Shown here: positions 1,774 to 41,544 of the stretch, piece after piece
How the letters are laid out: each line of letters begins with the position of its first letter
Numbering within the stretch: the stretch's first letter is position 1
NCBI GenBank assembly: GCA_002205965.3
Contig: NADL03000118.1
Coordinates: forward strand, 186,001-250,000
Source: Kappaphycus alvarezii
Taxonomy: Eukaryota; Rhodophyta; Florideophyceae; Gigartinales; Solieriaceae
Length of the DNA: 64,000 bases
Direction of reading: 5' to 3'
Position numbers and translations under genes: made by a program
The notes under the pieces: generated by a model
What the model saw: only the letters and a program-made list of their open reading frames with translations
Told to the model about the DNA's origin: nothing
Database searches by the model: none

Positions 1774-2070
1774 TCAAAAGTACCCAAGTCGCCCATACAT
1801 ATACCCGTGAATGACTTTTGATTGCTTAACCTTTCTACAATGAATACAGGTCACCTCAACCCCCTTCATTCGGGTCCATGACTGGGACCACCTGGTCCAG
1901 CAAGTAAATTTCACCACCTCCAATTCGACGCATTTTGAAATCTCTCGCTCATCTGAGGGCTTGCCCGATTCTTCTCCTCCCGCCGCGGGCTCTTCCCCGG
2001 ACCTTTCATTGCTATTCTCATTTTCCATCATTCTATAGACCAGTTTCAGGTTCACCCGCCCTCGAAGCAT
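1774..2070 (-). pseudogene. possible relic of the LTR U3-encoded acidic protein family
   Basis: An open frame of 98 residues with an acidic, Glu-rich N-terminal half (ENENSNERSGEEP) and two cysteines in CIHC. It is not recognisable as such. In the next frame the same DNA reads LDQVVPVMDPNEGG and then stops. That resembles the hallmark DQVVPTLEPDGG of the acidic U3 family found at five other places in this window. At DNA level TGGACCAGGTGGTCCC (16 nt) also occurs in the family copy at 19494-20100. I infer a heavily decayed member with a frameshift before the hallmark. No flanking LTR sequence was recognised, so this is tentative. The alternative is a chance ORF with a short match. Confidence 0.3.
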
Positions 2071-3110
2071 TTCCCTGCCCTTAATTCCTTCTTTTCAGCG
2101 TCCCACTCCATTTATTACTAGGCTATGATCTTTGAAAGGCTACCAGCAAAGAGTTCTGTCAGTCTCCTTTTCGTTTTGCAACGGATATAGTCTTTCACAT
2201 CATTTATACCCGAATTGAATAAGTAGAAGACTGTTGTGGGGCGAGAATGACGTGATTAGGCAATAGGTCCAAAATAGAGTAGTCCATGCATGAAGCCTGC
2301 CAAGAGTAGTGTTTGAATTGTCAAGTCGTTTCAAGGTCTTGTTTAAAATTTAGGCAGCACCCAACGGGTTTGAATACAGGGAAAAGTTGAGATTGGCTGG
2401 ACTGCTGAATCCAAAAAATAGGCATAGACTGGTTTGTAGTGGAAATTAGTGACAAATCCCTTTCAAATGATGATTAATGGCGAAAATCACACGTGTGAAT
2501 CTTAATTATTTAACAAGATATGTAGGGCCAATGAAGATCAAATAAATAGAGAATAATAAAACAATTACGTCATCAAGAAAGAAAAGCACACAACAGAGAA
2601 ATAAAAAAGAAAGGAGTATAAAGAAATGTAGATTTCGTAGCATAAAAAAAAATGGAAGTGGAGGGAGGAATAAAGAAAAAGGAATTCATGAGAGCTACTC
2701 AACCGAACAGAATTTCTACGTGTACGGAGAGTAACTTAAGTTTTTCGCTTCGCATCATGCTTACCTCCACTTAATCCTCTCAGCTAGCTTATATTTAACA
2801 TCTCTTCTTCTTTAAACAAATATCCATTAGTATACTTATGGTTGCGTGTAACATTGTTAATTATTTTTTTAGTTTTTATCTGGAAACAATGCTGATTACG
2901 AATTATTCAATGTTGAGTCTCTCTTATCCAATTATACATTTTCGTAAAATCGAACCCAGAATGAATTGGGAACAATAATGTATGGTCCTGGTACTTTCTT
3001 ATTTCGCCTAAATATATGTCGAGACTCCGATTGCAATGTTTTTGTACAAGTAAATGCCAATAGTAGTAGTATTTACCAGTACCATATCGCTTGACAGCGA
3101 AAAAAATGTT
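2071..3110. other. no gene seen
   Basis: This AT-rich stretch holds no long open frame and no repeat I could match elsewhere. The left border of the decayed LTR that follows may lie inside its last 100 bases. Confidence 0.5.
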
Positions 3111-3119
3111 AAAGTAATA

Positions 3120-4540
3120 AAATAGTACCTATTCTTACCTGTCCGTCCCCTATCCTTTCTACGGTCCTCTGTATGTTTACGGTCGTTCTACCAAGGTATT
3201 TCAATACTGTATTCAATCCCCCTAAATCGGTTCCAAACCAAGTTCTACTTCCCTTTTTCCTTACCTCCTTCTCCAAATTCATTTTTTCTGAGAAAAAAAG
3301 GGGCAAATGCACTACCGCAAATTCTTTTTTAGATTAGTTTTTCTATTTTAAATCTATAGAATGCGCCTTTGAGGGCCTAACTAAACCCTCTATTCCAAGT
3401 TTCAAACCTCCGCGATCATTTTACTCAGTAACATACCACTCCTACCTATTCGAAACACCCCAATCCACTGCCACTGCGAAAATTCCATCGAAATGAAACA
3501 CTTATGCCCCTCCAACGCCATTTACGAAACTAGCCACCATCGCACTCTAAACTTCATTCCCTTACACTTTTCAGCCCGACTGACTGCAATGAATATCTCT
3601 GCCAGCAAACCAAGAAAAAGGTGATCGCGTTCGTTTTTCGTTTGTTAATCGACGATGAGGCGGAGGAGATGAGTGAGGTGAGGGAGGTGGAGGTAGAAGA
3701 TGGAGCAGGGGAGACTTCAGAGGAGTGGGAGGTCCAGAGATTGGCTTACAAGGATGAAGGAAAGGAGGAAGAAGAGGAGGACGAGGAGGACGAGGAGGAC
3801 GAGGAGGACGAGGAGGACGAGGAGGAAGATGGAAATGACGAGGAGGTAAACGAGAAGGAAGGAAAAAGTGGAAAGTTTTGGAATGGTGGGGCGGGGACTA
3901 GATAGTGAAGACCAGGTAATCCCGACGCTGGAACCAAATGGGGGCATGTTTAGTGGTTTGTATATTCGCCAGGAGGAGCTGGCGAATTGGAAGCCGTTCG
4001 CGGATGTTTGTGGGGACTGTTTGGTTGGTATGGATATTTTGGATGATTTGCTTGGATCTAGAGTAGGGAACTGAAATTTTAATGACCAGTATCGTTTCTG
4101 CATCCATTTATATTCTTTCAATTATCATTTATTGGGAATCTCACGAGCACAGAAATTAATTCTATGAACTTTGTGATATTTATTATGGTTTTGCCAAGAC
4201 TTTAGGGGGGCAAAAAGTGTATATAAGCTGACTAATATGCTTCTAACGAGCGATTTCAATCAAGTTAGGAGACAAAATGAAAGTCGTACTCGGGTAGGAA
4301 GGGAGTTTTTCGTCAACTTCAGACTCAATGAGCGTCCCTGTTACTTTTTTTAGTGACGGCAGGTAGTAGAACCTGCTCCTTATGAATATACTTGTAGACC
4401 CTTGGTCCCTCATACATATTTACTACTTCCTGATCCTGAAAATATACTATGGTAACAATTTTGTCGCTTGCAACAAACTCCGCTCGGAGATAGTCATCGT
4501 CGTATATCTCTCGTCCGCCGATTTACCGCTACCGAGGTTC
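3120..4540 (+). mobile_element. decayed long-type Gypsy LTR, plus orientation
   Basis: The segment aligns by eye, in order, with the long LTR of Gypsy copy 1 (16927-18456, read on the minus strand). Shared parts are a U3 leader containing TTTCAATACTGTATTC, then GGGGCAAATGCACTACCGC, TTCCAAGTTTCAAAC and ATCATTTTACTCA, then an acidic-protein frame, then a TATA-like GTATATAAGCTGA near 4220. The U5 tail holds AATTTTGTCGCTTGCAAC and a degraded CCGATTTACCGCTACC end near 4537. Borders are approximate and no target-site duplication was found. It is the most diverged LTR copy in the window. Confidence 0.65.
3493..4074 (+). pseudogene. U3-encoded acidic protein, copy D (decayed)
   Basis: Member of the unrecognised LTR-encoded family. 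The ATG at 3493 is at the place used by other copies, but the first ~120 bases are diverged and frameshifted. From about 3583 a readable frame gives NEYLCQQTKKKVIAFVFRLL then IDDEAEE, matching DADDYLRRQTKKKIIEFV and FVEDEAEE of the Gypsy-1 copy. An acidic tract follows (3765-3850, GAGGAC repeats giving EED repeats). After another frameshift the C-terminal block reads DQVIPTLEPNGGMFSGLYI, then PFADVCGDC and MDILDDLLGSRVGN, and stops at 4074. Function unknown. Conservation of both ends across copies argues for a real protein in the ancestor. This copy cannot be translated as one chain. Confidence 0.6.
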
Positions 4541-5904: not shown

Positions 5905-7516
5905 TGATAGCAGAAAATCTGCGTAAGAGAAATATCCGACGCCTAATATCCAAAAAAGGAGGTGTTGCGAGCGACAAAAGTGCTATGGTAAGGTAGTTTT
6001 GGGAACGGAAAGTGCTGTATACGGACGAGAAATCAATTGCAACCGATATTTTCCGAAAGTGGCAAGCTGTACCTTCGCCTTGTAAACGACATATCTGCTT
6101 TCGTGTACGTCACAAGGCAAATACAATGGACTGAAATGGAAGAGGGCTCAGTGGGTCATCCAACAATCCTAAAGGGGAAGGCTTTTTCATCTAGCTTCGA
6201 GGCTTGAGAGCCGTTTATAAGTTTTGGGCCTGAAGATGACTACCAACTTCATTACAACTGGAGTGTCTCTCTTGCGTTTATCTGCCAACTTGCTTGATAT
6301 CAACAAGAGGAAGCAGTTTACTCATCTTATATAGACTTTTTGGCTGACCCTAAAGTCTCAAACAACCATGCTAAGAACCATAAAATGCCTCAATTGGAAT
6401 CGTGTGAACGAGAATGACTAACAGAAGGTACTATAAGGATAAATATCTAGCTTCTTCCTTACTATCTTAGTCCTCTATATCAGAGCCAAACAATTCCCCC
6501 AAAATATCCATTCCACCCAAGCAGTCTCCACAAATATCCGCGATCGGCCTAGAACTCTCCATTGCCTCCTGCGAAATATCTAGACCACTGAAGATGCCCG
6601 CATCCAGTTCCAGAGTCGGGACCACTTGGTCAATACTATTCAGCCCCGCCCCACCTCACCGACTTCTTCTCCCTCATCCTCCTCACCCTCCCCTCCATCC
6701 TCTTCATCGTTCTCGTCGTCGTCCATGTCATCCTCCTCGTCACCCTCGTAAACTAAATCCGGGTCCACTAACGCTTTAAACGACTTGCCGAGCTCATCTT
6801 ACTCCTGTTCTGCGTCAACTTCGCTGAATTCTTCTGCCTCATGTTCAACGAACAGCTCGCGGACGAACTTTATGATCTTCTTCGTCTGGCGTCGCAGGTA
6901 TTCGTCTGCGTCCGTCGGGCCATATGCAGCGAGCGCAAGGCCGTTTAAGGGGCGAGAGGGGCTGTTTTTGGTGATGGGGGCGGACTGGCGAAGGTTGTTC
7001 ATTTTGGTTGTAAATGGACTGAGGCGATTATGGATGAAGGATAGAGGGGGTGAGAGGGGGGTTAGTGTGTAGAGGTTGGTGGATCTCAAAAAAGTTGGGT
7101 AAAATGGGTTTAAGTAAACCTTAGAGACGGACTGGTGTTGGTACTAAAAAGTTAAAATCGAAATTGCAGTAGCGCATTTGCTTGAAATGTCTACATAAGC
7201 AGTGAATTTGATGAAGAAGGTAGATAAAAAAGACGGAAAACGCTGATTTGGAGTAGATTTGGAGGAGAGGATACAGTATTAAAATATCTAGGGAGGATGG
7301 TAGACAAATTTGGAAAGGACGGTAAGCGGATTCAGGGGCGGGTCGTTAATTTTATTTAGTGTGGAATGGGGGCCTAATTTACTGTGGTGTATGTGGGTTG
7401 GTACCCAGTAAATTTGTACGGGAGCGTAGATACCGTATATTGGCCAAGCCAGTTGTGAAACCGTACAATTTTGGTAAGTTGTTGTTCCTTTTGGGAGGAC
7501 CATTTCCTGTATTACA
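5905..7516 (-). mobile_element. long-type Gypsy LTR inserted in a LINE (1612 bp)
   Basis: On the plus strand it begins TGATAGCAGAAAATC, the degraded counterpart of the LTR terminus TGATAGGGGTAAATC, and ends CCTGTATTACA. Flanks are ACGGG on the left (5900-5904) and AAGGG on the right (7517-7521), a 5-bp duplication with one mismatch. The LINE ORF2 frame continues across the two flanks, which supports both ends. Inside, read on the minus strand: a U3 leader sharing CTAGATATTTTAATACTGTA with other copies, the acidic-protein frame, a TATATAAG box near 6333, and a U5 with GCGAGCGACAAAAGTGCTA on the plus strand. No second LTR or internal region is present, so it behaves as a solo LTR. Confidence 0.75.
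6467..7002 (-). pseudogene. U3-encoded acidic protein, copy C
   Basis: The N-terminal part is the best preserved of the family. From ATG 7002 it reads MNNLRQSAPITKNSPSRPLN, then GLALAAYGPTDADEYLRRQ, TKKIIKFVRELFVE, and an acidic stretch ending at a stop near 6799. The frame is also open upstream to an ATG at 7089; I prefer 7002 because copies A, B and S have MSN or MTN at the same place. After frameshifts the C-terminal block reads DQVVPTLELDAGIFSGLDI, then ADICGDCLGGMDILGELF and GSDIED, stopping at 6467. It lies upstream of the LTR TATA box in the same orientation, so in U3. Function unknown. See the findings for a transactivator hypothesis. Confidence 0.65.
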
Positions 7517-16926: not shown

Positions 16927-18456
16927 TGATAGGGGTAAATCGTCGGGAGAAGAGATACTTAGAACCAACTACCCCAAGACGGAGGTGTTGCGAGCGACAA
17001 AAGTGCTACCGTGGTATAGTTGAACGAACGAAAAGAGTGTATAGGGAACGACAGTTGAATGGGCTACAAGCAAGTATGGAAGGGGCAGGGTCTACCACCT
17101 ATGCTTAGTGACTAGGGTAAAATAAATGCTTCTTGGGTCTGAAGTTGACTCTCAACTTCCTAACTATTTGGGACTGAGCTTGAAGCTGTCTGCCAACTTG
17201 CTTGACCTCTCCATGAGGAAGCGGTTTACTCAGCTTATATAGACTTTTGGCTAACCCTAAAGTCCGAACAAAACTACAGAAGGTACCAGGAAATGCATAC
17301 AAACAATTTGTGTGGATGATATACTCTAAACAAAAGATACTTAAGAAACTAACAATCAATGAGGTCCTCTTATTTCCCATTCTCTAAATCAGATCCAAAC
17401 AACTCCTCTAAAATATCCATGCTGTCCAAGCAGTCCCCACAAATATCTGCGAATGGCTCACAGCTCTCTATTCCCTCCTGGGAGATATCTAAACTACTAA
17501 AGATATCTCCATCCGGTTCCAGCGTCGGCACCACTTGATCCATACTCTCCAGTCCAGGCCCCACCAGTACAACACTTTCCATGCCCCCATTTCCCTCATC
17601 CAACTCGTCCTCGTCCTCGTCATCCTCCTCTTCCTCCTCTTCATCCTCATCCTCATCCTCATCTTCATCTCATCCTCATCTTCACCTCATCCTCATCTTC
17701 ATCCTCATCCTCATCCTCTCGTTATTAACCTCATAGACCAATCCAGGGGCTACCCACTCCTCAAAGGTCTCCCCAGCTCCTCCTCGATGTCCCACTCCTG
17801 ACCCTCAGGTACCTCCTCGGCCTCATCCTCGACGAAGAGCTTGCGGACGAATTCTATTATCTTCTTCTTAGTCTGCCGTCTCAGGTAGTCGTCTGCATCC
17901 GTCGGGCCATATACTGCGAGCGCAAGGCCGTTTAAGGGGCGAGAGGGGCGGTTTTTAGTGATGGGGCGGAGGGGCGAAGGTTGCTCATTTTGGTTGTAAA
18001 TGATTGTAGACGGAGGATAGAGGGTGTTTTGGGTGTGTTGGGGGAGAGGAGTGATGAGTAAAATGATCAGGGACGTTTGAAACTTGGAATAAAAAGGTTT
18101 AAATAGGCTCCCGGGGCAGGTTCTATCGATTAGGAATAGGTAAAATAAATCTGCAAGGGATTTTGTAGTAGTGCATTTGCGCCCTTTTTCTCAAAAAAAA
18201 CGAATTTGGAGGAGGAGGTAAGCAAAAAGGGAAAAAGAACTTGATTCGGGATCGATTCAGAGGGGTAGATACAGTATAAAAATATCTAGATAAAATGGAA
18301 GTAAATTTGGGGAGGACCGCGGTAATGATAAGCGAGGTTCAGGGAGGACGAGGAAGGACCGGAACTATAAGCAAATTTGGACAAGGAGAGGTAGTACAGT
18401 AAACTATAGGCCTGTAGATGACGGCGACAAAAAAAATCTGCGCCTAACACACATCA
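16927..18456 (-). repeat. 5' LTR of Gypsy copy 1, long type (1530 bp), carries an ORF in U3
   Basis: Plus-strand ends are TGATAGGGGTAAATCG and TAACACACATCA, giving TG...CA on both strands. The first 99 bases (U5 end) are identical to the 5' LTR of Gypsy copy 2 at 38999. After that similarity falls to roughly 80% by eye. Between U5 and the LTR start lie, on the minus strand, a TATATAAG box near 17240, then upstream of it the acidic-protein frame (17988-17370), then a U3 leader of about 470 bp. Flank after 18456 is AGAGT. The matching flank is lost with the 3' end. Confidence 0.8.
17370..17988 (-). pseudogene. U3-encoded acidic protein, copy A (in the LTR of Gypsy copy 1)
   Basis: Start ATG at 17988: MSNLRPSAPSLKTAPLAP then an early stop. 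The stop follows loss of one C relative to copy C (GCCCCATC against GCCCCCATC). Past it the frame gives GLALAVYGPTDADDYLRRQ, TKKKIIEFVRKLFVEDEAEE and a linker with QEWDIEEELG. A Glu/Asp tract of repeated GAGGAT/GAGGAC codons follows (17600-17730). The C-terminal block (17603-17370) is open: DQVVPTLEPDGDIFSSLDI, then ADICGDCLDSMDILEELF and GSDLENGK. This copy proves that the gene travels inside a Gypsy LTR, because the LTR abuts a Gypsy leader and gag. Confidence 0.7.
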
Positions 18457-19075: not shown

Positions 19076-20206
19076 TGATAGGGGTAAATCTTCGGGAGAA
19101 GAGATACTTAGAATCAATTAACCTAAGAAGGAGGTGTTGCAAACGACAAAATTGCTACCGTGCTCTAGTTGAACGAAGAAAAAGGGTTGTGTTCAGAGGG
19201 ATAGAAGCTAGTATAGAAGGGGCAGGGTCTACCACTGATGCTCTATGACCATGCGTAAAAAATGTTTCTTATGTCTGAAGTTGAGTCTCAGCTTCTTAGT
19301 ACTAAGGACTTGACTTGATTTTGTCTGCTAACTTGCTTGAAATCCACAAGAGGAAGCAGTTTACTCAGCTTATACAAACTTTTTGGCTAACCTAAAGTCT
19401 CAAAGAAACAGACTAAAACCATAAAATGCATCAAATGGAATCGTGTGAACGAGAAAGACTAACAGCAGATACTATCAGGATAAATATCTAGATTTATTTC
19501 TTAATATATTTGTCATCTAGATCAGAGCCAAACAGTTCCCCCAAATATCCATTCACCCAAGCGGTCCCTACAAATATCCGGGAATGGCTTAGAATTCTCC
19601 ATTGCCTCCTGCAAAATATCTAGACTACTGAAGATGCCCCCATCCGGTTTCAGAATCGGGACCACCTGGTCCACATTTCCGGCCCCTTCCCCACTATTAC
19701 AGCACCTTCCATGCCTCCCTCCCCCTCATCCTCCTCATCCTCCTCATCCTCCACTTCACTTTTCTCTTAATCTTCGTCAGAAGAGTCAGAGATCACAATT
19801 ACTCCCTCAGTCTCCCCTTTGTTCTCCATGGGAGCCCCCACCGTTGTATACTAGTGGCTCCCATTGGTCCACCCAGTCCTCCTCTTCCTCCTCATCCTCT
19901 TCCTCCTCTTCCTCCTCCTCTGCCTCTTCTGCCTGCTCGAAGCAGTTACGGCGGCCCCACTCCCGAACGCGTTCCCGGTCCAACCTTCTACAGTAATCAT
20001 CGTATCCGGTTGGACCATTTGCCATCAGGGCCAGAGCGTTGAGGGGACAACGGCCTCGGGATGACTTGGCTATGGTGAGGGAAGGGCAGATGTTGGTCAT
20101 GTTGAAGGCAAAAAAAAGGGGTGAGCCGATGGGGTAGTTGATAGCGGGGGGTTGCCTCAACGACATCTATTTCGTTCTATAATAGGGCAACGTATTCGAA
20201 ACATAT
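19076..20206 (-). mobile_element. long-type Gypsy LTR (B), probably truncated
   Basis: Plus-strand start TGATAGGGGTAAATCTTCGG followed by a U5 similar to the other LTRs (GGAGGTGTTGCAAACGACAA). Then come the promoter region with a degraded TATA (CTTATACAAAC on the plus strand near 19375) and the acidic-protein frame. Only about 100 bp of U3 lies beyond the ORF start before similarity ends near 20206. Its ORF and U3 resemble the solo LTR at 40232 more than copies A, C and D. No duplication was found. Confidence 0.65.
19494..20100 (-). pseudogene. U3-encoded acidic protein, copy B
   Basis: Start MTN at 20100 (the frame is open back to an ATG at 20166): MTNICPSLTIAKSSRGRCPL, then NALALMANGPTGYDDYCRRL, then a Glu-run of more than 15 acidic residues and VDQWEPLVYNGGG, with a stop at 19807. 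Past frameshifts the C-terminal block reads VDQVVPILKPDGGIFSSLDI, NSKPFPDICRD and then, in another frame, GELFGSDLDDKYIKK to a stop at 19494. The N-terminal block is a second subtype: YDDYCRRLDRE replaces DADDYLRRQTKK of copies A, C and D. Function unknown. Confidence 0.65.
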
Positions 20207-20230
20207 CACGGCCTTGGACGAAATAAAAAA

Positions 20231-20673
20231 ATGCGAAGCAGTGCCACAGCTTTGAATTTGCATGCGATTAGGACAATAACTAAAAATCTGCTTGATAAAA
20301 TATCGGAACCGAATTTGGACGACGAAGCGGATCAAAAGTCGAAAGATTCCTATTCTGATAAAGGAGGACCAAAATACTCAAAGAAAAAAATAGAAATGGA
20401 GCTTTACAATGAATTTGGATTCATGGGAAAAATCCGTTCCATGATTTGTTTCGTAAAAGAAAAGTGATGGGAAGAGTTTTTTTTGAAGAATCATGGAGAG
20501 GGAGAAGAAAAAAGTTTGTGGAGAGGACCATTCTCCTAAAGAAAGGACCGTTTCCTTACCAACAGTACTATAAGGAGATGGAATCTGCAGACGGCTCTTT
20601 ACTAACAAGATATGAGAGCTGCTTAAATGTACGTTGCAGTCTAAGCAACTTCAGATATTTAGTTACGCAGTAA
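20231..20673 (+). pseudogene. hypothetical, frameshifted Lys-rich reading frame
   Basis: Two overlapping plus frames, 20231-20467 (SEPNLDDEADQKSKDSYSDK) and 20446-20673 (GRRKKFVERTILLKKGPFPY), read as one sequence if a single frameshift near 20450 is allowed. Composition (Lys, Asp, Ser) is protein-like but no domain is recognised. It starts right after the truncated LTR B. It could be part of a host gene or of an older element. Confidence 0.25.
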
Positions 20674-30569: not shown

Positions 30570-32257
30570 GCCGAGATTACATAGCCTTGATTGCTCCACC
30601 GCCCTGAAGCCGACGGTCTCTCCCCGGTGTTCCTGCGAATTTTGCTCCGGCTGGCTGGAGGTGTCCATCCACAACGCGACTGCTTATATATGCTAACCAA
30701 ATTCGTCAACCTGTGCTGCGATGGTTCTCTGCCCGAATCTGGTCGACCCTTTTTCTGTGGTGGGCGCTGTTCAGGCTCCCAGACTCAACGGTGGCATCCG
30801 CCCGATCGCGGCCGGGTTATTGCTTCGACGCCTCATCGCCCGCCTCCCAGTCCGCAAAGCTTCGACTTCCCACCAAGTGGGTGTCGGAGTCAAGAACGGC
30901 ACAGACGCCATCATTCACGCGGTCCGACGCTTGACCCAGCAGCCGTCATGTCCAATGCGGCCTGCTTGATGGCTGGCCTGAAGGTAGCATTTTAGGGAGT
31001 GTAGTTCCTTCCCCATTACTGTGTCGGTATACCCTTTTTGAGTTGATGGCGGTTTTCTGGAAAACCATGGGATAGACCGGTTATATCTTCCAAGAGTAAA
31101 ACACCCAACCCTTTTTCCCTTGACCCAGCGTCCTGAACTTCGCCAGCATGTCTTGGTACAACCGGATGCTCAAAACGCATTCAACAGCATTTCCCGGCAG
31201 CCCATTCTCGACACAGTCATCCAGCATGCCCCCGGGCTCGCCCGCTGGGTTCATTACTGCTACGGAGCTCGTCCTTCCTCTCTTTTGGCGATTTCACTAT
31301 TCGCGAGACTGCGGACTCAACAGGGCGACCCCCCGGGGCCTCTACTTTTCGCCCTCGCCCTTCACCGCTAGTCCTCTCGTTACAGGAACGTTTCCGTCCT
31401 TCTTTGAATGCCTGGTATGCTGATGATGGTAATTTGGTTGTCACTCGCTCTTTTGCTCCTGCTGCCCTTTTTTTTCCAAAAGAATGGAGCAGAGATTGGT
31501 TTCTCCCTGAACCTCACCAAAACACAAGTTTGTGGCCTTTCCCCTGCTCTCCCGGTCCTTGCCCTACCTTGTCCTTGCTCAACGCCCAGGGCTTTACGGT
31601 TCTGGGCTCCCCAGTTGGTTCTATTGCATTTACTTCGGACTTCTTCGCATCCTGTAAAGCTGATATCGATCACGTCATCTCCCGCTTGTTGGCCCTTGAT
31701 GACGCTCAGCTGGCTTATCATGTGCTTCGTTTCTGTGCCAGCGCCTGCAAGGTCGTCTATCTGTGAAGAACTCTTTCCCCCAATCAATATACGGCTTTCG
31801 CTGTCAGCTTCGACAGGAAGCAGTGGGAAGTGTTCACACAGATTCACGGCCCTTGCTCAGAGCAGCCGTGGGACCAAGCTTCCCTCCCGATCTCCAAGGG
31901 CAGCCTTGGTTTACGTCTGGCTACTGATATCGCAGAAGCTGCCTACGCTCCCTCTGTGATCGATTCTTTTCGCCTCTTCTCTTCTCTCCTCGCGTCTTCC
32001 GCCGATGTTCACGTCCAGGAAGTGCCCAGGTCAGCTATTTCTCTGCTCACAGCCCGCTATCCATCACTTTCCTCTGCACTGACCAGCACTGCTCTTTTCG
32101 AGCGCTGCAGTGCTTTGGTCCCTGGTGAACGCCTCCAAACCACTATCACGTTTGAACTGCTATCATCGGAGTTTGGCCGCCTTTTCCATTCTTCATTTGC
32201 CGCCAACAGGGCCTGCTTGCTCTCTTCCTGCGAACCCTCGTCTTGCTCTGTGTTCTC
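30570..32257 (+). pseudogene. RLE LINE ORF2, reverse transcriptase part
   Basis: The RT begins with ADGLSPVFLRILLRLAGGVH and QRDCLYMLTKFVNLCCDG, then after frameshifts QPDAQNAFNSISRQPILDTV. The QQGDP box is altered (TQQGDPPGPLLFALAL). The catalytic box is kept in NAWYADDGNLVVTRS, in another frame. A connector region follows (YHVLRFCASACKVVYL; QEVPRSAISLLTARYPSL) up to the Gypsy insertion at SCSVFS. RT copies the LINE RNA at the nicked target. At least five frame changes make this copy inactive. Confidence 0.75.
30941..31118 (-). repeat. MITE-1 insertion with 11-bp target duplication
   Basis: CTTGACCCAGC at 30930-30940 is repeated exactly at 31119-31129. Removing one copy plus the insert restores alignment to the LINE at about 57250-57270. 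On the minus strand the insert starts GGAAAAAGGGTTGGGTGTTT, continues CTCTTGGAAGATATAACCGG, and ends AGGCCGCATTGGACATGACG plus GCT. Other copies run about 50 bp further to CATCAAAACCCCC, so this one is truncated at that end. No coding capacity. Confidence 0.85.
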
Positions 32258-32968
32258 TGATAGGGGTAAATCGTCCGGAGAAGAGATACTTAGAACAACT
32301 ACCCCAAGACGGAGGTGTTGCGAGCGACAAAAGTGCTACCGTGGTATAGTTGAACAAATAAAAGGCAGTGTATATGGGAGAGAGTTGAGAGGGCTACAAG
32401 CAAGTATAAAAGGGGCGGTCTACCACTGATGCTCTGCGACCAGCTTTGGAAACCTTTTCTTGGGTCTGAAGTTGACTCTCAACTTCCTACTACTCGGAGC
32501 TTGACCTGAAGTTGTCTGCCAACTTGCTTGACTCTCAAGGAGGAAGCACTTTACTCAGCTTATATAGACCTTTCGGCTAATCCTAAAGTCTCAATAACAT
32601 ACTAAATACCATAAAACGCATTCACGGGAATCGTGTGAACCAGAGAGACCATTAGAAGATATTTCCTCAAGGTAAATATCTAGGTGCCATACCCATGCCA
32701 GCCCCATCGACCAGGGGTGGGAATTGATGTGGCCATTATATAGACCTTTCAGAGTCACTCGTAGTATCACCCACAACCTAGAACTGTACTGACATCCACT
32801 ATGACAGCGTGTCCTAAAATAAAAAATCAACCGATGAATTTGCCACACTCACCCAAATTAAAAATATCTTGCAAATTCAAAAACTGTAAAAATATCTTCC
32901 CAGTTCCAATACTGTATACAATTATGGTCCTCATCTAGATTTTTTCGTGTGCGAATTTGTGCACATCA
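32258..32968 (-). repeat. 3' LTR of Gypsy copy 2 (short type, 711 bp)
   Basis: Plus strand begins TGATAGGGGTAAATCGTCC and ends TTTGTGCACATCA. It contains a TATATAGACC block at about 32563 (plus strand), which on the minus strand gives the TATATAAG promoter. There is no acidic-protein frame: the U3 carries CACATCAATTCCCACCCCTG (minus) where long LTRs have the ORF. Confidence 0.95.
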
Positions 32969-33002
32969 CGCCCTCGCTCAAGACGAACGTCCCGGCTCGT
33001 TC

Positions 33003-34057
33003 TCAATGCTCTTGTTGTTCTTGTGGGAGTTCTATCCATTCATCAGGGAGAGTATAGGGTTCACTGTAAGGATATGGTAGTAGCTCATTTCCAATATGAT
33101 GAGAGAGTGTGTACCGTGCGATAACCGGCTCATCTCCTTGGTCAAGAGTTTCCGTAGATTCGGCGTATGGTTTCATAGTGTTCTCTAATGAGCTCCTCCC
33201 GTTTCACTTCTCCAAACCTTCCAAATGTGAGGTAGTAAACGTAGTATGCAAACTTTTCTGGCAACGGGTCCAGAAACGGGTATCTGAAGGAGAAAAAAAC
33301 TCGCAACATAAGGACTGAGTCCTCACGAGTAAGGTGCGCCCCGTGAATGGTCTGGAAGCACATGCAAATACTAATGGCAAAAAAGGAAATTACTTCTGCT
33401 TCTCGGGTCCTCTGTCATTTCGCGAAGCCAACGTCTAATTGGTAGCCGTCCAATAATTAAGGATGCATAGTTTCCCCTGGGAGACTAGGCGGTGTTTGGG
33501 CGATCTTCTTGGCGATCTTCCTCGCTGCTCCCGACGCCTTGCCCTCTTCGATGATCCCCCGATCACTTGATGGTCCAGCTCGTATCATCATCACGGCCTC
33601 GGGAGGATCTGGTCTTCGGCTGAGGTTGTGTTTCTGAGCGGAGCAACGTAAGGTTCCCATAGAGGATATGGGACCAGTCGATATTCCATATCAGGGGGCA
33701 AGCTGTAACCTCTCAGTCGCACATCTTGGTTGTTCTTGAGAAATACGTAAACTGGACGGATAATGTTCAGATATGTTTGCGACAAGTCTCCGATAGCTAC
33801 CATTCCATACCTCCTATAGAGTAATGATATATGACTTCCACAAACTCTGGACCTGCTTCCGTGAACCTTCCGTTTTGGAATGAGAATAGAACTCTGATCA
33901 ATAGTCGGAAATCTTCTTGAGGTAGCAATGGTCCGTTCAACGTACGAAAACATAGGCATATATTAATGTAGAAATGGATGATTACGTGGAGTTCGTAGTA
34001 GTCACGCGTAATCGAGATGATCCATTCCCAGGCCCTTTTTCCTCCCATAGGAATCAT
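33003..34057 (-). pseudogene. Gypsy copy 2 extra ORF after integrase, two tandem copies of an unknown domain
   Basis: The start ATG at 34057 overlaps the pol stop as ATGA, an arrangement used for termination-reinitiation. Unit 1 (34057 to about 33600) has a stretch INICLCFRTLNG, then QEDFRLLIRVLFSF, PEFVEVIYHYS and, after a frameshift, LVPYPLWEPYVAPL. Unit 2 (about 33450-33003) repeats the pattern: ISICMCFQTIHG, REDSVLMLRVFFSF, PEKFAYYVYYL, and, after a frameshift, LLPYPYSEPYTLP. Between them lies a basic linker (ARKIAKKIAQTPPSLPG). No signal peptide or clear membrane anchor is seen. I do not recognise the domain. The position is that of env in retroviruses, but nothing else supports an envelope role. 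Broken by at least three frameshifts or stops. Confidence 0.7.
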
Positions 34058-35400
34058 TCTATAGTTAAAGATGAGTATGCCCGTGGTTGCGCATAGTCCT
34101 GTGTGAGAAGGAATTCTTCAGGCCTCTGATGGTAAGGGACCAGACGACGTGCATGGATTGCCCTCCTTGATCTCTTCCCTGAGCTTGAACAGAGCTTATA
34201 ATGCGGGTGTCTTTCCTCCGTGACGATGCAAGGGTTCGAGTACTTTGTTTGGAAAGCCGGCCACTTCACAGCCTGTTGCATTGCTTTTCCGTGTGCTACA
34301 AGTACTTTAGAGCCGACTGAGAAAGTTTGGACTGGAGGCTCTTCATCCTTATTTCTTGTCTGTGTTAGCGCGCGGTGTGATCTCCAGCTTTCGGTGGCCA
34401 GTAGTTCGACCTCTCTACTCTCTTCATCGATAACATTTGTTTCCATATCTCTCTGTAACATTCTAGGAGCTCTTCCGTACATTAGCTCAAACGGTGACCG
34501 TCCACTTCTTCCTCTTCTTCGACGATAGCCGTATAACACTTTTGGTAAGGCATCTTCCCACTGGATTTCATTCTCGACATAGTTTTCGATATTGCTCGTT
34601 TGATGGTTCCAACCATCCTCTCCGCTTTACCGTTTGACATAGGAGCGTATGCGAGAACTGTCTTTAGCTGAATACCTTTCTCTTCCAAGAAACGAAGCAG
34701 TGAAGTTGCAGTAAAACAAAGGGCGTTATCTGAGATGATCCTTTTTGGAAGACCAAACGGTTCAATTATTTCTTTTTCGATGAATCTCAGGACCACTTCA
34801 GCATTGGCCTCCTCAACTGCAACTGCTATTGGCCATCCAGTAAGATGTTCCACCCCTATAAGGAGTATTTGTTTCCGGAAGAGGTTTCCTTGAATGGGCC
34901 GGCAAAGTCAATTGAAAAGGTTTCAAAGAGACCGGAAACTGGAAAGCCTAGAGTTGTCTTATACTTTCGTATTGGCGTGAATTTTTGACAGTTGTCGCAG
35001 CTTTTCACGAATTATAGACGTCCTTATGGATACTGGGCCACCAGAATCTCTCAGTAACGAATTTCTTGGTTGTTTCGAGATCCCAATGCCCTAACTCATC
35101 ATGAAAAGTCCTCAAGATCTTCATTCTTTCTTTCAAAGGGGCCACTAGTCGAGGACCGGCTTTCGTGTGTCGGAAGAGTTTCCCATTCCATAGTGTAAAA
35201 GCCTTTTGATTCCTGCGTACCCAATTTCTGTGTTCAATATCAACCTTTCTCATTTCTAGTCCATCCAGGAATTTAATTAGTCCGTGAATATTAGCTTCGT
35301 ACTCGTTATTGTTCGGCACTTGCACCTCGGCAACTCCGACGATGTTCTCGGAAGCTTTTTCATTTGGAATCAGTGGATCCCTCAAGCGGGATAGGTATCG
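34054..35400 (-). pseudogene. Gypsy copy 2 integrase
   Basis: An HHCC-type zinc region (HDELGHWDLETTKKFVTERF, WWPSIHKDVYN) lies in 35385-35005, with the cysteine pair in the next frame. The core has the first Asp in IDFAGPFKET near 34905, then HLTGWPIAVAVEEAN, the second Asp in ISDNALCF and Glu in SNGKAERMVG, with 35 residues between them as in DD35E integrases. After a frameshift at about 34540 the tail reads LYGYRRRRGRSGRSPFELMY to PPVQTFSVGSKVLV and stops at 34054. Integrase would insert the cDNA with a 5-bp duplication, as seen here. Confidence 0.9.
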
Positions 35401-36665
35401 GCAGGCTGATTATTGCGTCCGGGCCTATACACAATTTCAAACCGATATTCTGCGAAAATGTCGAGCCATCGGGCCAAGCGGTGATGTACATCTTTCTTTT
35501 GGATGCTGTCTTAAGTGCCTGGTGATCAGTTATCAAGACAAATTTCTCGAGTGATAAAAGGTATACGCGAAACTTTTTCAGTGCGAAGACAACAGCGAGC
35601 GCTTCTTTTCGCAGACTGAGTATCTCTTTCCGCATCATTCAGAGTGCGACTTGCGAATTGAACCGGGTGTAGTCTTCCGTTTTCATCTTTTTGGGACAAA
35701 ACGGCACCCAAAGACCGTTCTGAGGCATCTGTCTCCACAACAAATGGTCTCTTGAAATCTGGATACATGAGCACTGGGGGGACACATAGCTTATCTTTAA
35801 GCTCTTCAAATGCGGTTTGCATTTCCTTGTTCCATAAAAATTTTCCGTTCTTTGTTGTGCTGGCATGTAACGGTGCTGCAGTCTTGGCGAAATCTTTGAT
35901 AAATCTCCTGTAATATGAGGCCAGTCCTAAGAAGCTTCGAACCTCCGTCTTTGAAGCGGGCCTTGGTGCCAACTTGATTTTTTTCGTTTTCTCTGGATCC
36001 ACTTTAATTCCCTCTTGATCGACGATATGACCGAGTAATTGGATAGACGTTTTCGCAAAGAAGCATTTGCTTAACTTAATTTTCAGGCTGTACGCAGCTA
36101 TTTTCTCCACCACAGTCTTGACATGCGATATGTGCTGATCCAAGGTTTTTGAGAATATCACTACATCATCGATATAAACTCTTGCAAATGGAAGTCCTTT
36201 CAAAACCTCGTTCATCATTCTTTGGAATGTAGCTGGGGCATTCATGAGACCAAAAGGCATCACTTCGAACCTGAATGTACCGGCTTTGCTGGTAAAAGTT
36301 GTTTTTTCCTTGCATTTTTCATCCAATGGAATCTGCCAATAACCAGTGTAAAGATCAATTGAGGTGAAGTATCTCCCGTCCTTCAAGTCCTCGAGGATTT
36401 CCTCCATATTCGGAATCGGAAATCGATCGGGTATCATTCTCTGGTTCAGTTGTCGGTAATCGACGCAAAAACGCAGCTTTCCATCCTTCTTTGGTGCGAC
36501 CACAACTGGAAATGACCATGGGGATGAAACTGGCCGAATGATATCATTTTTTTCCAGCATACTTGTAACATTCTCTGAGATAAATTGGTCATATTTTGGC
36601 GGTTGACGTCTAGGCCTGTGGTAAATTGAGTTCGGTAAGTTCAAATGAGTGAGTGACCGGTACAC
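35360..36665 (-). pseudogene. Gypsy copy 2 reverse transcriptase and RNase H
   Basis: The RT frame 36665-35526 is almost intact: SSPWSFPVVVAPKKDGKLRF, CVDYRQLNQRMIPDRFPIPN, then IDLYTGYWQIPLDEK, FEVMPFGLMNAPATFQRMM, and the catalytic VYIDDVVIFSK. The thumb and RNase H follow (FLGLASYYRRFIKDFAKTAA, VVETDASERSLGAVLSQKDE). A single-base loss near 35610 shifts the RNase H end into the next frame (EALAVVFALKKFRVYLLS, LITDHQALKTA). The first RT residues overlap the end of the gag-protease frame (36641-36665), so protease and RT lie in different frames here. Confidence 0.9.
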
Positions 36666-38909
36666 TTGCTTGTCTTAAATCGAACGCTCCATGCAATTAC
36701 TTCGGAAGATGTTAACATGTCGGATATTATCATTGAGGCGGGGGCTGGAAGGTGCTGTACTTTTTCTTGAATTTCTCCAATTTGGCGCTGGTCCTTTTCT
36801 TGATCCTCACCCTCCAAATTTTGAAGGACCTCTTCCGGCGTGCTCACATCTTCAGATATGGAATTCGATATATTCTTGTTTTCCGTGCAATTGTAATCTT
36901 CTTTCATGCCCCGAATTCCGTCCTTTGATTCGATATTATCGCAAAAAGAAACACATTCAGGTGTCAAACCTACCCTAGAATTCCATTCTTCATCTGTTTC
37001 AAACCCAGAATCATAATCGTCCCATGTCATGTTCATTGTCCCCCGAGCGTACCCTTTCTCACTTCCGAAAGTGTTAGTTGGTTCGGAATCTTCGCTGTCA
37101 TAGCTAGAAGTGAAATCTTCACTGTCCGTCTCTCTTAGATCTTCCGGATGTGTGCTTTTGTCGAAATCCAGGGGCATCTTCACGTTTCTGCCGTCAACAT
37201 TAACTGAAACGATTTGGTTGCCCAAGTCAATGCAGGTCCCTAGTCTTTCCATGGTAGGACAGCCAATGATTGCATCGAAAGGGAGCTCCGGCATGACGAG
37301 AAAGTCTACATCAACTTTAGAGTCCCCAAAGAACACGGAAACCTTGTTAACAGTGCCCATGCATTTTGAGACGGTTCCATCCGCCACAGTTATTCTTCGA
37401 GTAGTTGGAATAATTTCGAGACCTAAATCTGTCACCAAAGTTTCTGAGATAAGGTTTGGAACAGCGCCCGAATCGAAAAGAGCTTGGGTTTTCATTCCCA
37501 ATACTTTGACTGGTACTAGTTTAAGACGTCTTGGTGCTGTCGAGGCCGATTGAAGAAACAGTTTCTTACCCTTAGCGGACTTATTAGACCTGATAATTTT
37601 TTTGAGTTCTTTTCTCGCATCCTCTGCGTCGCCCCTCAAAAGTTGACCAAACGTTATCCCAGTTGGGGCCGATGCAAGCTCAGCCACCAAATTGTACTTC
37701 TTCACATATTCTAGTACGTCCTTCGGGATACTCTTAAATTTCTTACTCTTTCTCGTCTTCTTGGCCGAAGTGTTTCCCACCCCTGGAACAACTTGATCAA
37801 GCCTCTTGGTTCGAGGAGGTACAGGTGCTGGGATATGCTCCAGCATTCCATAATCTAGCCTAGGTTTTTTCGACAAAACGTTCCCTTCCCCATCCCTTTT
37901 TGTCACATTAACTTGACTGATTTCTTCAGCGATGGATACATTACCGGCATCCGCCAACCTTTGATCCTTCCTGTTTTGTAAGATTTTCATCTCTGGTCCT
38001 GACTCACTCCTCGCGTCCGATAAATTTGCTCTTCTGTTGTCTTTAGACCAGCAGTTACTTTCATGATGCCCGTAACGACCGCACTTTCCACAACGAGTGT
38101 TTCTATGTGGATTATCAGGACACCTATTTGCAAAGTGTCCAGGCTTGTGACAGTAGGAACAGACTTCTGCGGCCTTGGGGGCCCCAGACTGGTTCTTCTT
38201 AATGGTAAGAGTAAGGCTTTCCAACTGCGAGGTTATCATGTCAAGTCGATTATCGAATCGGGTTTCCAACCTTTCTTCCAAGTTTTTGACATCGCTCCTG
38301 ACTGATTCCAATGCTGCTGCGCTAGTCGCTGGCCTTTGATAATTCTTTTCAGGATGTACGATAGATAGATGTACGGGTTTCCCTCGGTACACTTAGTGAC
38401 TGAAACGTCTCCGAATTTTTGACAAATTCTACTATGGTACCCTTCAGTTCATTAAAAGTGTGAGGGCCCTTGATGAGGAGGAAATCGGAGAGCCGCTTAT
38501 CCCCCATCGCCGCCTTACGCAGCATTCCGTACTTGGCTTGGGCGTTGAACCCAGCCTTTTCATAGAGATCACACAAGTATACCAATGAGCTTAACAAATC
38601 GTCGAAGTTGAGCCGGGCCTCTATGGCGGTACGAATCATCTCATCTGGTTCTACCTGCTTAGCATATTCTTTCACAAGCCACTCACATACCTCACCGAAG
38701 TTACGCCCATTCCCGTTAAGAGACCACCCGTTGATAAACTTGGCCTTATATTTGTGCTTTGCGTCACCATGAAGATAGGCGAAGATACTTTCGGCCTTCT
38801 CTTCATCGCTCTTCTCACGCATCACAACGTTGACATATGTATAGAGAAACTCCTCAACGTCTTCATTCTTGCCCCCTGTGAACGTTATACGAGCAGCGTT
38901 GAGATCCAT
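36641..38909 (-). pseudogene. Gypsy copy 2 gag-protease
   Basis: Gag starts at 38909 (MDLNAARITFTGGKNEDVEE) with an LTR leader of 89 bp before it. One frameshift near 38375 separates the capsid part from a 583-residue frame. That frame holds a coiled-coil spacer, two CCHC zinc knuckles (CSYCHKPGHFANRC and CGKCGRYGHHESNC) and a basic region (KKTRKSKKFKS). Next is the aspartic protease with ALFDSGAVPNLIS and DAIIGCPTMERLG. The final linker is acidic (DSEDFTSSYDSEDSE). The knuckles would bind genomic RNA and the protease would process the polyprotein. Confidence 0.9.
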
Positions 38910-38998
38910 GATTACAGAAAAGAAATCCCCTCGAATGGTTCCCTAAGACTGCTCAACTCGAATACCTCGGGTGCAACCCCCTCCACAAGAGTACCAAA

Positions 38999-39718
38999 TG
39001 ATAGGGGTAAATCGTCGGGAGAAGAGATACTTAGAACCAACTACCCCAAGACGGAGGTGTTGCGAGCGACAAAAGTGCTACCGTGGTATAGTTGAACAAA
39101 TAAAAAGGAGTGTATATGGGAGAGAGTTGAGAGGGCTACAAGCAAGTATAAAAGGGGCAGGGTCTACCACTGATGCTCTGCGACCAGCTTAGGAAAAAGT
39201 TTTCTAGGGTCTGAAGTTGACTCTCAACTTCCTACTACTCGGAGCTTGACCTGAAGTTGTCTGCCAACTTGCTTGACCTCTCAAGGAGGAAGCACTTTAC
39301 TCAGCTTATATAGACCTTTCGGCTAATCCTAAAGTCTCAATCAAACATACTAAATACCATAAAACGCATTCACGGGAATCGTGTGAACCAGAGAGACCAT
39401 TAGAAGATATTTCCTCAAGGTAAATATCTAGGTGCCATACCCATGCCAGCCACCCATCGGCCAGGGGTGGGAATTGATGTGGCCATTATATAGACCTTTC
39501 AGAGTCACTCGTAGTATCACCCACAACCTAGAACTGTACTGACATCCACTATGACAGCGTGTCCTAAAATAAAAAATCAACCGATGAATTTGCCACACTC
39601 ACCCAAATTAAAAATATCTTGCAAATTCAAAAACTGTAAAAATATCTTCCCAGTTCCAATACTGTATACAATTATGGTCCTCATCTAAATTTTTTCGTGT
39701 GCGAATTTGTGCACATCA
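38999..39718 (-). repeat. 5' LTR of Gypsy copy 2 (short type, 720 bp)
   Basis: Minus strand begins TGATGTGCACAAATTCGCAC and ends GATTTACCCCTATCA. A second candidate TATA (TATATAATGGCC) lies upstream of the shared TATATAAGCTGAGTAAA. The last 99 bases are identical to the LTR of Gypsy copy 1. Confidence 0.95.
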
Positions 39719-40231: not shown

Positions 40232-40512
40232 TGATGTGCGCAAAAATTGCACACGAAAAAAAATCCAGAAGAGGACCAAATTTGGATACAATATCGGAAT
40301 TTGCAAGATATTTTTTAATTTGGATGAGTGTGGCAAATTAATGGATTGATTTTCTATTTTAAGACACGATGTCATTAATAGATGTCATTACACGTCCAAC
40401 TTCGTCATACTTTTCGAAGACGTCGCAGTATTTAAAGTTCGAAATCGACGTCGTTGAAGCAACCCTCCGCCATCAACTACCTCATCGGCTCACCCCTTTT
40501 TTGGCCCTTAAC

Positions 40513-41091
40513 ATGACCAACCTCCGCCCGTCCCTCACCATTACCAAGTCATCCGAGGCCGTCGTCCACTCAACGCTCTGGCCCTGATGTCAAATGGTCC
40601 AACCGACTACGATGATTACTGTAGAAGATTGGACGGGAACGCGTTCGGGAGTTGGTCCGCCGTATCTGCTTCGAGCAGGCAGAAGAGGAAGAGGAGGAAG
40701 AAGAGGAGGAAGAGGAGGATGAAGCTGAGGACTAGGTGGAACCGTGAGAGCCACTATTGTACAACGGTGGAGGGGCTCCCATGGAGAACGAAGGAGATAC
40801 TGAGGGAATAATTGTGATCTCTGACTCTTCTGACGAAAATGAAGAGAGGGCTGAAGAGGAGGATGAGGAGGATAAGGGGGAGGGAGACATGGAAAGTGCT
40901 GGAATAGTGGGAAGGAGCCGGAAAATATGCAACAGCTGGTCCCGACTCTGGAACCGGATAGGGGCATCTTCAGTGGTCTAGATATTTCGCAGGAGGCAAT
41001 GGAGAAATCTAAGCCGTTCGTGGATATTTGTGGGACTGACTCGGTGTAAGATATTTCGGGGGAACTGTTTGGCTTTGATATAGAGGAATAA
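40513..41091 (+). pseudogene. U3-encoded acidic protein, copy S (in the solo LTR)
   Basis: ATG 40513: MTNLRPSLTITKSSEAVVHS, where a missing base shifts the frame. The neighbouring frame gives NALALMSNGPTDYDDYCRRL. The acidic tract (GAGGAAGAAGAGG repeats, 40680-40735) and GGGAPMENEGDTEGIIVISD follow; another acidic run (DENEERAEEEDEEDKGEG) leads to the C-terminal block. That block reads VPTLEPDRGIFSGLDISQEA, then KSKPFVDICG and, after a damaged site, GELFGFDIEE with a stop at 41091. It belongs to the same subtype as copy B. The TATA box lies 135 bp beyond the stop. Confidence 0.7.
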
Positions 41092-41225
41092 GGTATTTAG
41101 GAAAGAATCTAGATATTTATCCTGATAGTATCTGCTGTTAGTCTTTCTCGTTCACATGATTCCAGTTGATGCATTTTATGGCTCTCAGTATGTTTCTTTG
41201 AGACTTTAGGGTTAGCCAAAAAGTC

Positions 41226-41233
41226 TATATAAG
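41226..41233 (+). promoter_or_regulatory. LTR TATA box
   Basis: TATATAAG in GTCTATATAAGCGGAG. The same element is conserved at this position in the short LTRs and in copies A, C and (degraded) B. It sets the U3/R boundary shortly downstream, so everything upstream, including the acidic ORF, is U3. Confidence 0.6.
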
Positions 41234-41544
41234 CGGAGTAAATTGCTTCCTCTTGTGGAGGTCAAGCAAGTTGGCAGACAACTTCAAGTCAAGTCCCAAG
41301 TAGTTGGAAGTTTACAGTTAACTTCAGACCAAAGAAAATTTTTTCCTACGCTAGTCACAGAGCATCAGTGGTAGACACTGCCCCTTCCATACTTGCTTGT
41401 AGTCCTCTCTACTGTCTTCCTTATCCAATCCTTTTTTTTTCGTTCAACTATACCATGGTAGCACTTTTTCGCTTGCAACATCTCCTTCTTGAGGTAGTTG
41501 GTCCTGCCTATCTCTCCTTCCGACGATTTACCCCTATCATCCTG

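What the first reader, a model, noticed from the sequence alone, without database searches (positions are those of the whole stretch)
40232..41539. A Gypsy LTR that encodes an unrecognised acidic protein in its U3 region
Long LTRs (16927-18456, 5905-7516, 40232-41539; partial at 3120-4540 and 19076-20206) hold, upstream of the TATA box, a frame with a conserved N-terminus (M-S/T/N-N-x-R-P-S ... GPTD..DY.RR), an acidic tract and a conserved C-terminus (DQVVPTLEPDGG ... MDILGELFGSD). Both ends are recognisable in five copies while the spacer varies, which is the pattern of a protein under selection and not of random LTR drift. Known precedents for U3 coding are MMTV Sag and the Nef overlap of lentiviruses; I know of none like this in Gypsy elements. 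This is the best candidate for an undescribed system in the window.
Basis: partly seen in the sequence, partly recalled or inferred. Interest (0 to 1): 0.88.

Follow-up and report, generated by a model that had tools for sequence, protein, structure and literature searches.

The report
Jumping-gene repeats carrying their own gene
The end repeats of a family of virus-like jumping genes, in what is probably a red seaweed genome, carry a small, unrecognised acidic protein gene with its own promoter-like box; natural selection kept that protein in the lineages that spread, but what it does is not known and some very young copies lack it.

Summary
40232-41539 is a genuine solo LTR (identical 5-bp target repeats) of a Ty3/Gypsy element, and its U3 holds a broken copy of a real gene. 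The window has a sixth, very diverged copy (about 1.3-2.5 kb, minus strand) matched only as protein. Of 99 fetched, 15 keep one open frame of 179-249 codons. Codon counts show purifying selection on internal tree branches (omega 0.38-0.44, against 0.75-0.86 in neighbouring R-U5 and 1.06-1.49 in the wrong frames) and decay nearer neutral on terminal branches. A TATTTAAA box sits at a fixed distance before the start codon in both main subfamilies. The protein has a basic, helical N-terminal part, a length-variable Asp/Glu tract and an acidic-hydrophobic C-terminus; no relative was found in Pfam, PDB or a 5.8-billion-protein set. Best guess: an accessory, trans-acting transcription or chromatin factor of the retrotransposon. 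Against an essential role: a very young family (all 40 LTR matches listed at 100%) lacks the gene, and most copies are broken. New variant of a known kind (U3-encoded accessory genes).

The parts
40232..41539 (+). Copy C: solo LTR (U3-R-U5), 1308 bp, target repeat TCCTG on both sides; U3 ORF broken
   Evidence: 39 further copies at 83-89% identity fetched
40513..40554 (+). Copy C, start of the U3 protein (MTNLRPSLTITKSS)
   Evidence: tblastn
40563..40687 (+). Copy C, rest of the N block, with a frame change inside
40748..40930 (+). Copy C, linker, SIM-like IIVISDSSDE stretch and acidic stretch
40930..41088 (+). Copy C, C block, broken by a stop
41226..41234 (+). Core promoter box (TATATAAGC) of the element, downstream of the U3 ORF
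16927..18456 (-). Copy A: 5' LTR, followed by a primer-binding-site-like sequence and an open frame in the gag region (15873-16838)
   Evidence: L049 is this copy
17813..17956 (-). Copy A, N block in frame
17373..17669 (-). Copy A, acidic tract and C block, 99 codons open
5905..7516 (-). Copy B: LTR region, N block A-like, C block C/E-like (mosaic); outer end not confirmed
6829..7002 (-). Copy B, N block from ATG
6470..6631 (-). Copy B, C block
3120..4540 (+). Copy D: LTR of a diverged subfamily; ends not confirmed
3534..3902 (+). Copy D, N block and acidic tract, 123 codons open
3910..4071 (+). Copy D, C block
19076..20240 (-). Copy E: LTR, C-like subfamily; distal part of U3 not matched
19856..20100 (-). 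Copy E, N-terminal 81 codons open
19512..19671 (-). Copy E, C block (two pieces)
1844..2291 (-). Sixth, very diverged copy: N block 2255-2154 (a weaker match reaches 2291), start of C block 1897-1844; core promoter box at 1601
32258..39718 (-). Complete element (LTRs 38999-39718 and 32258-32968, target repeat GAGAA) whose U3 lacks the ORF; internal Ty3-type protease, RT, RNase H and integrase pieces
   Evidence: 40 genome LTR matches listed at 100%

Best explanation
The U3 region of this Ty3/Gypsy lineage carries a self-contained accessory gene. Shown: a conserved ORF of about 180-250 codons inside genuine LTRs; a TATA-like box at a fixed distance upstream of its ATG in the two main subfamilies; purifying selection on the protein in the lineages that founded the subfamilies; a protein with a basic, helical N-terminal part, an Asp/Glu tract and an acidic-hydrophobic C-terminus. 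Inferred: the gene is transcribed from its own U3 promoter (also in solo LTRs), or read from the 3' end of the genomic RNA, and makes a nuclear protein that acts in trans on LTR chromatin or promoters. In this model the N-terminal helix, which differs between subfamilies, would give targeting; the shared acidic-hydrophobic C-terminus (..DILGELFGSD..) would act as an activation or co-factor-recruiting segment; the acidic tract would be a tolerant spacer. Because it acts in trans, elements with a broken or missing gene can still be mobilised, which would explain a young gene-less family and many broken copies.
For: Gene: 15 of 99 fetched copies have a single frame of at least 150 codons from an M-x-x-[LIV]-[RCHS] start to the stop after the C block (L020 and L031 end abnormally, so 13 keep the usual C-terminal end). 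Omega on internal branches 0.44 (C block, 69 distinct rows) and 0.38 (N block, 68), against 1.06-1.49 in the other two frames and 0.75-0.86 in R-U5 (68 of 99 loci, 57-58 distinct). Codon-position changes on internal branches 44/41/72 (p=0.0012) and 89/67/142 (p=4e-7), flat in R-U5 (84/88/85). Sixth copy recognisable as protein but not by blastn. TATTTAAA within 200 nt upstream of the start in 28 of 28 A-type copies (116-117 nt) and 31 of 35 C-type copies (30 of them at 83-87 nt), against 0.65% of base shuffles. Intact frames occur in a young family: 28 A-type loci have median 99.3% identity in the promoter-proximal LTR. Net charge +3 to +6 in the first 45 and -8 to -14 in the last 55 residues, in 15 of 15. 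N block predicted helical, pLDDT 86-91 over residues 31-50; C block mostly unordered. N block differs between subfamilies more than the C block, as expected for targeting plus a shared effector.
Against: No function was tested and no homolog of known function was found. A very young family has no such ORF, so the gene is not needed in cis. 84 of 99 fetched copies fail the intact-frame rule; of 19 LTR pairs about 7.5 kb apart only 4 are open in both LTRs. One early frame break is shared, base for base over 75 bases, by three loci with different outer flanks (L049, L070, L074), which suggests that a broken allele spread, although it lies in a run of one base where repeat slips or assembly errors are possible. 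D-search copies have TATTTAAA upstream in only 5 of the 11 whose start was located. Acidic tracts and short acidic-hydrophobic motifs are common in unrelated proteins; the reading as activation domain or SUMO-interacting motif is recalled, not tested, and a SIM-like search on four intact proteins found the stretch in L030 only, a different hydrophobic run in L072 and nothing in L100 and L107.
Confidence: 0.5

Rival explanations
1. Counter-silencing protein: the U3 protein disarms host silencing of the element (for instance by binding SUMO or SUMO-dependent repressors, or by mimicking acidic histone-binding proteins), rather than activating transcription directly.
For: C-type copies carry a SIM-like stretch (hydrophobic run followed by DSSDE or similar) in some frame in 33 of 39 copies; a protein acting on host machinery would work in trans for related elements, including the young gene-less family.
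Against: The SIM-like stretch was not found in all intact proteins examined; nothing was learnt here about silencing in this host; no Pfam, PDB or protein-set relative was found.
Confidence: 0.2
2. Captured host gene, now mostly a passenger: a host coding sequence entered U3 long ago, was useful in early lineages, and is being lost in current ones.
For: 84 of 99 copies fail the intact-frame rule; terminal branches near the R-U5 level; a very young family without it.
Against: Six window copies, one of them beyond blastn recognition, and constraint on internal branches; intact in some copies of a young family. No host gene related to it was seen, but the genome searches are saturated by LTR copies and could hide one.
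Confidence: 0.15
3. Particle or genome-handling accessory: the acidic protein acts as a chaperone for Gag, nucleic acid or integrase rather than in transcription.
For: Highly acidic (26-47% Asp+Glu) with a basic N-terminal part; retroelements do carry small accessory chaperones (general knowledge).
Against: Placed in U3 behind a promoter-like box of its own, not beside gag-pol; no similarity to the element's internal frames beyond one 9-residue match at E=0.054.
Confidence: 0.1
4. Not a gene: a purine-rich tandem repeat inside the LTR opens frames by chance, and shared descent gives the look of conserved ends.
For: The acidic tract is repeat-like and varies in length between near-identical copies.
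Against: The signal lies outside the tract: N and C blocks show frame-specific constraint absent from the other frames and from R-U5, and a protein-only match in the sixth copy.
Confidence: 0.03
5. Superantigen- or Nef-like membrane or immune-acting protein, as in MMTV and lentiviruses.
For: Same place, U3.
Against: Highest 19-residue hydropathy 0.89-1.75, above 1.6 in only 3 of 15 and there in the charged C-terminal block; no MG start in 15 of 15; the probable host is an alga.
Confidence: 0.02

Closest known systems
Ty3/Gypsy LTR retrotransposons (Metaviridae)
   Same: LTRs TG..CA with 5-bp target repeats, order protease-RT-RNase H-integrase, best solved relative Ty3 RT
   Different: Ty3-type LTRs are regarded as non-coding (recalled); these carry a selected gene in U3
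MMTV sag (superantigen in U3)
   Same: An accessory gene lying inside U3, duplicated by reverse transcription into both LTRs; MMTV too has been described with an extra promoter upstream in U3 (recalled, not checked)
   Different: No convincing membrane segment, no Pfam match, different protein layout, different host kingdom if the host is an alga
Lentiviral nef (overlaps U3)
   Same: Coding sequence reaching into U3 near the 3' end of the genome (recalled)
   Different: Here the whole gene is inside U3 and no MG start is seen
Acidic transcriptional activators (VP16 type) and retroviral or foamy transactivators such as Tax and Tas
   Same: Targeting part plus acidic-hydrophobic segment; would act on the element's own promoter (functional analogy, recalled)
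   Different: No sequence relative found; no activity tested
Extra ORFs of LTR retrotransposons between pol and the 3' LTR
   Same: Accessory coding capacity of unknown role (recalled)
   Different: Those lie in the internal region, this one inside the LTR itself

Membership tests
Ty3/Gypsy LTR retrotransposon | LTRs with TG..CA ends and 5-bp target repeats | tested here: met
   Copy C, element 32258-39718; both ends were found in 19 of 39 C-type copies, and 15 of these 19 are solo LTRs with matching 5-bp repeats
Ty3/Gypsy LTR retrotransposon | Order protease, RT, RNase H, integrase | tested here: met
   Pfam on pieces of 32258-39718; best PDB match a Ty3-type RT chain (4ol8), E=8e-72 (that 4ol8 is Ty3 is recalled, the next match 7q5b is named Ty3-G)
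Ty3/Gypsy LTR retrotransposon | Primer binding site next to the 5' LTR | tested here: inconclusive
   A sequence beginning TTTGGTAC follows the LTR in the window element and in 17 of 30 A-type loci, one of them the window's own copy A; the tRNA was not identified
U3-encoded accessory gene (as MMTV sag) | Selected ORF wholly inside U3 | tested here: met
MMTV Sag protein | Type II membrane protein of the Sag family | tested here: not met
   No convincing membrane segment; no Pfam match at a meaningful E for P0007 or for eight pieces
Nef | N-terminal MG myristoylation start | tested here: not met
   Second residue S, T, N or A in 15 of 15 intact copies
Acidic transcription activator | Acidic and hydrophobic segment able to activate transcription | not testable with these tools
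   Composition fits; activity needs an assay
SUMO-interacting protein | Hydrophobic core with flanking acidic or phospho-serine residues that binds SUMO | tested here: inconclusive
   Motif in 33 of 39 C-type copies, in one of four intact proteins looked at; binding not testable

The most novel reading that the evidence does not exclude
A retrotransposon family keeps its own transcription or counter-silencing factor gene inside the very DNA that the factor controls, so that gene and target are copied together into both LTRs and every solo LTR remains a self-contained gene plus target; gene-less relatives now live off it as parasites of a parasite.
Probability: 0.3. Interest if true: 0.85.

Novelty: new variant of a known kind. 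Interest (0 to 1): 0.64.

Why it matters
LTRs of Ty3-type elements are usually treated as regulatory DNA only. A selected gene inside U3 means that a solo LTR, usually counted as debris or as a stray promoter, may still be a gene, and it gives a system in which to test how a retroelement regulates itself in trans and how gene-less relatives exploit it. Repeat annotation that masks LTRs would hide such genes; other genomes can be rescanned for U3 frames with the same internal-versus-terminal-branch test. If it acts against silencing, it would be a counter-defence gene in a lineage where, as far as I recall, none is described (not searched).

Tried and rejected
Homolog searches: 167-residue read-through of copy B (134 candidates, none at E<=0.01) and the natural intact ORF P0007 (2779 candidates, none at E<=0.01). 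The gag-protease frame as a yardstick found 4 relatives among the 7998 candidates scored, one from EukProt, so the database does hold some eukaryotic relatives of the element. IMG/VR scans with the C block, the RT and P0007: nothing; for single proteins these scans reach close relatives only. PDB with profiles of both blocks: none for the N block, two weak matches for the C block (E 0.08 and 0.33, DJ-1-like proteins over 19 residues), taken as chance. Pfam on eight pieces and on P0007: only matches below the curated cut-offs. Rfam and tRNA scans of the window: none. Fold search was not run because the C-block model is of low confidence and the N block is little more than one helix. Literature on ORFs inside LTRs: (search listings and abstract starts only; no paper was opened); PMC10787394 (Podospora crapaud) was noted, from its abstract start, for LTR variation confined to the 5' half of the LTRs.

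Binning pairwise dN/dS by pS biases the lowest bin upwards and the highest downwards; the tree-based counts with controls are the main evidence. Parsimony on short blocks is crude; R-U5 at 0.75-0.86 rather than 1 shows the neutral level of the method. Rows dropped: of 104 copies, 5 in the C block and 10 in the N block had no match or too short a match; 31 of 99 loci had no R-U5 segment by the rule used. The fetched copies are the best-scoring ones of capped searches, so they lean towards young and intact copies.

Full report
What was claimed.

The LTR is real. 40232-41539 begins TGATG and ends CTATCA, and the five bases on either side are the same, so it is a complete solo LTR. Of the 39 further genome copies of this subtype fetched, both ends could be found in 19; 15 of these are solo LTRs by matching 5-bp repeats. 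The window also holds a complete element, 32258-39718, with LTRs of 720 and 711 bp, a GAGAA repeat on both sides and internal protease, RT, RNase H and integrase pieces of Ty3 type.

The frame is real and older than the DNA similarity. N and C blocks are found in the five named copies and in a sixth at about 1.3-2.5 kb on the minus strand. That sixth copy matches only as protein (E=0.001 and 0.017), in the right order and followed by the TATATAAGC box; blastn with 1510 bases around it found only itself in the window, and the reversed window gave no match at E<=0.05. Each of the five named copies is broken, and so is the sixth.

The genome. After many unanswered calls, the genome search located the window in a genome of 336,021,096 bases in 884 contigs. 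From memory this size fits the red seaweed Kappaphycus alvarezii; no call confirms it. A search with the C-terminal piece of copy A scored 150 of 7707 candidates; all 150 match at E<=1.2e-47 and 95-100% protein identity; 5 of 150 have a stop in the matched part, and 77 of 150 lie in a frame of at least 215 codons with no stop in the match. Nineteen same-strand pairs lie 7.5-7.6 kb apart, as expected of two LTRs around a 6-kb interior. The D piece also gave 150 scored matches (E<=8e-20); the sixth-copy piece gave 66, of which 61 hold stops.

Intact copies exist. By one rule (a single frame from an M-x-x-[LIV]-[RCHS] start to the stop after the C block, at least 150 codons) 6 of 39 C-type, 6 of 30 A-type and 3 of 30 D-search copies are open, 179-249 codons long; two of these 15 (L020, L031) end abnormally. 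The A-type family is young: the promoter-proximal LTR parts of 28 loci have a median identity of 99.3%, and 71 of 378 pairs are identical.

Selection. Codons of the C block (99 rows, 69 distinct) and N block (94 rows, 68 distinct) were aligned from 104 copies (99 loci and five window copies). Parsimony counts on FastTree trees give omega 0.44 and 0.38 on internal branches, 0.75 and 0.66 on terminal ones. The same counts in the other two frames give 1.06-1.49 on internal and 0.83-1.06 on terminal branches; the R-U5 part of 68 loci, read as if coding, gives 0.75-0.86 internal and 0.71-0.98 terminal. Changes at codon positions 1/2/3 on internal branches are 44/41/72 and 89/67/142 (binomial p for position 3: 0.0012 and 4e-7), against 84/88/85 in R-U5 (p=1.0). 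On terminal branches position 3 is not enriched in the C block (p=0.92) and slightly in the N block (p=0.016). In the window alone, A against B gives dN 0.058, dS 0.559 (N block) and 0.131, 1.021 (C block), whereas the close pairs B-C, B-E and C-E give ratios of 0.8 to 2.6. The picture is a gene kept in the active lineages and decaying after insertion.

A promoter of its own. TATTTAAA lies within 200 nt upstream of the start codon in 28 of the 28 A-type copies whose start was located (116-117 nt) and 31 of 35 C-type copies (30 of them at 83-87 nt), but in only 5 of 11 D-search copies; base shuffles of the same stretches have it in 0.65%. Copies within a subfamily are not independent, but the two subfamilies share the box at different distances. 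No transcript data were available, so use of this promoter is inferred.

The protein. In 15 of 15 intact copies the first 45 residues carry net +3 to +6 and the last 55 net -8 to -14. The middle is an Asp/Glu tract whose length differs even between the two LTRs of one element (L071 and L072). AlphaFold2 on short window pieces gives a helix in the N block (residues 31-57, pLDDT 86-91 over residues 31-50) and little order in the C block (mean pLDDT 49.5). C-type copies have a SIM-like stretch in 33 of 39. No relative was found in the 5.8-billion-protein set, Pfam, PDB at a meaningful E or IMG/VR. Resemblance of the C-terminus to acidic activation segments is recalled knowledge.

Modularity. Copy B has an A-like N block but a C/E-like C block. 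Copy A and the gene-less element are 94.8% identical over 5 kb of interior and the promoter-proximal part of the LTR, and the match stops in U3 just downstream of the ORF. The gene-less LTR shares its first U3 bases with copy C (80% and 88% in two stretches). Distal U3 is therefore exchanged, and the ORF can be lost with it.

Evidence against an essential role. The gene-less 720-bp LTR has 40 genome matches listed, all at 100% identity as printed (40 of 2357 candidates scored, the window's own copy among them), with six pairs about 6.75 kb apart: a family at least as young as the A type that does without the gene. Redundancy of the assembly was not checked. One early frame break is shared base for base by L049, L070 and L074, whose outer flanks differ; L075 has a similar but not identical stretch. 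That suggests a broken allele spread, but it lies in a run of one base, where slips or assembly errors can recur. Of the 19 pairs, 4 are open in both LTRs, 9 in one and 6 in neither; mixed pairs mean change after insertion or assembly error in the repeat tract.

Reading. I take the gene as established in sequence terms (about 0.93). For its role I commit to an accessory trans-acting transcription or chromatin factor (about 0.5), with counter-silencing as the main rival (0.2). Acting in trans would reconcile past selection on the protein with the spread of gene-less and perhaps broken relatives that keep the same promoter-proximal LTR. It would also predict that the gene-less family depends on gene-bearing ones, which is testable.

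Known kinds. The position is that of MMTV sag, and partly of nef, but a defining feature of each was tested and not met. I found no description of a U3 gene in a Gypsy element (listings only), which is weak evidence of absence. I rate it a new variant of a known kind.

Noticed in passing
window 33006-34117, minus strand: Between integrase and the 3' LTR of the gene-less element lie two related frames of unknown family (38% identity over 61 residues, E=8e-12), a duplicated extra ORF; no Pfam match for the two pieces scanned.
   Followed up: partly
window 38999-39718: The gene-less LTR has a second TATA-like box (GGTCTATATAATGG, about 39490) resembling its own core promoter (GGTCTATATAAGC, about 39312), in the distal U3 where gene-bearing LTRs have the TATTTAAA box and ORF.
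   Followed up: no
window 28930-29607, plus strand: Protein-kinase frame (Pkinase E=5e-11), apparently truncated; it resembles casein kinase 1, a label that is recalled.
   Followed up: no
window 55537-59099, plus strand: A further retroelement with a reverse transcriptase frame (RVT_1 E=2e-13 at 56935-57837); part of it is repeated at 31147-32158 (67% DNA identity).
   Followed up: no
G000 C385:3874-19244: Three gene-bearing LTR matches in a row, 7.5 kb apart: perhaps two elements sharing an LTR.
   Followed up: no
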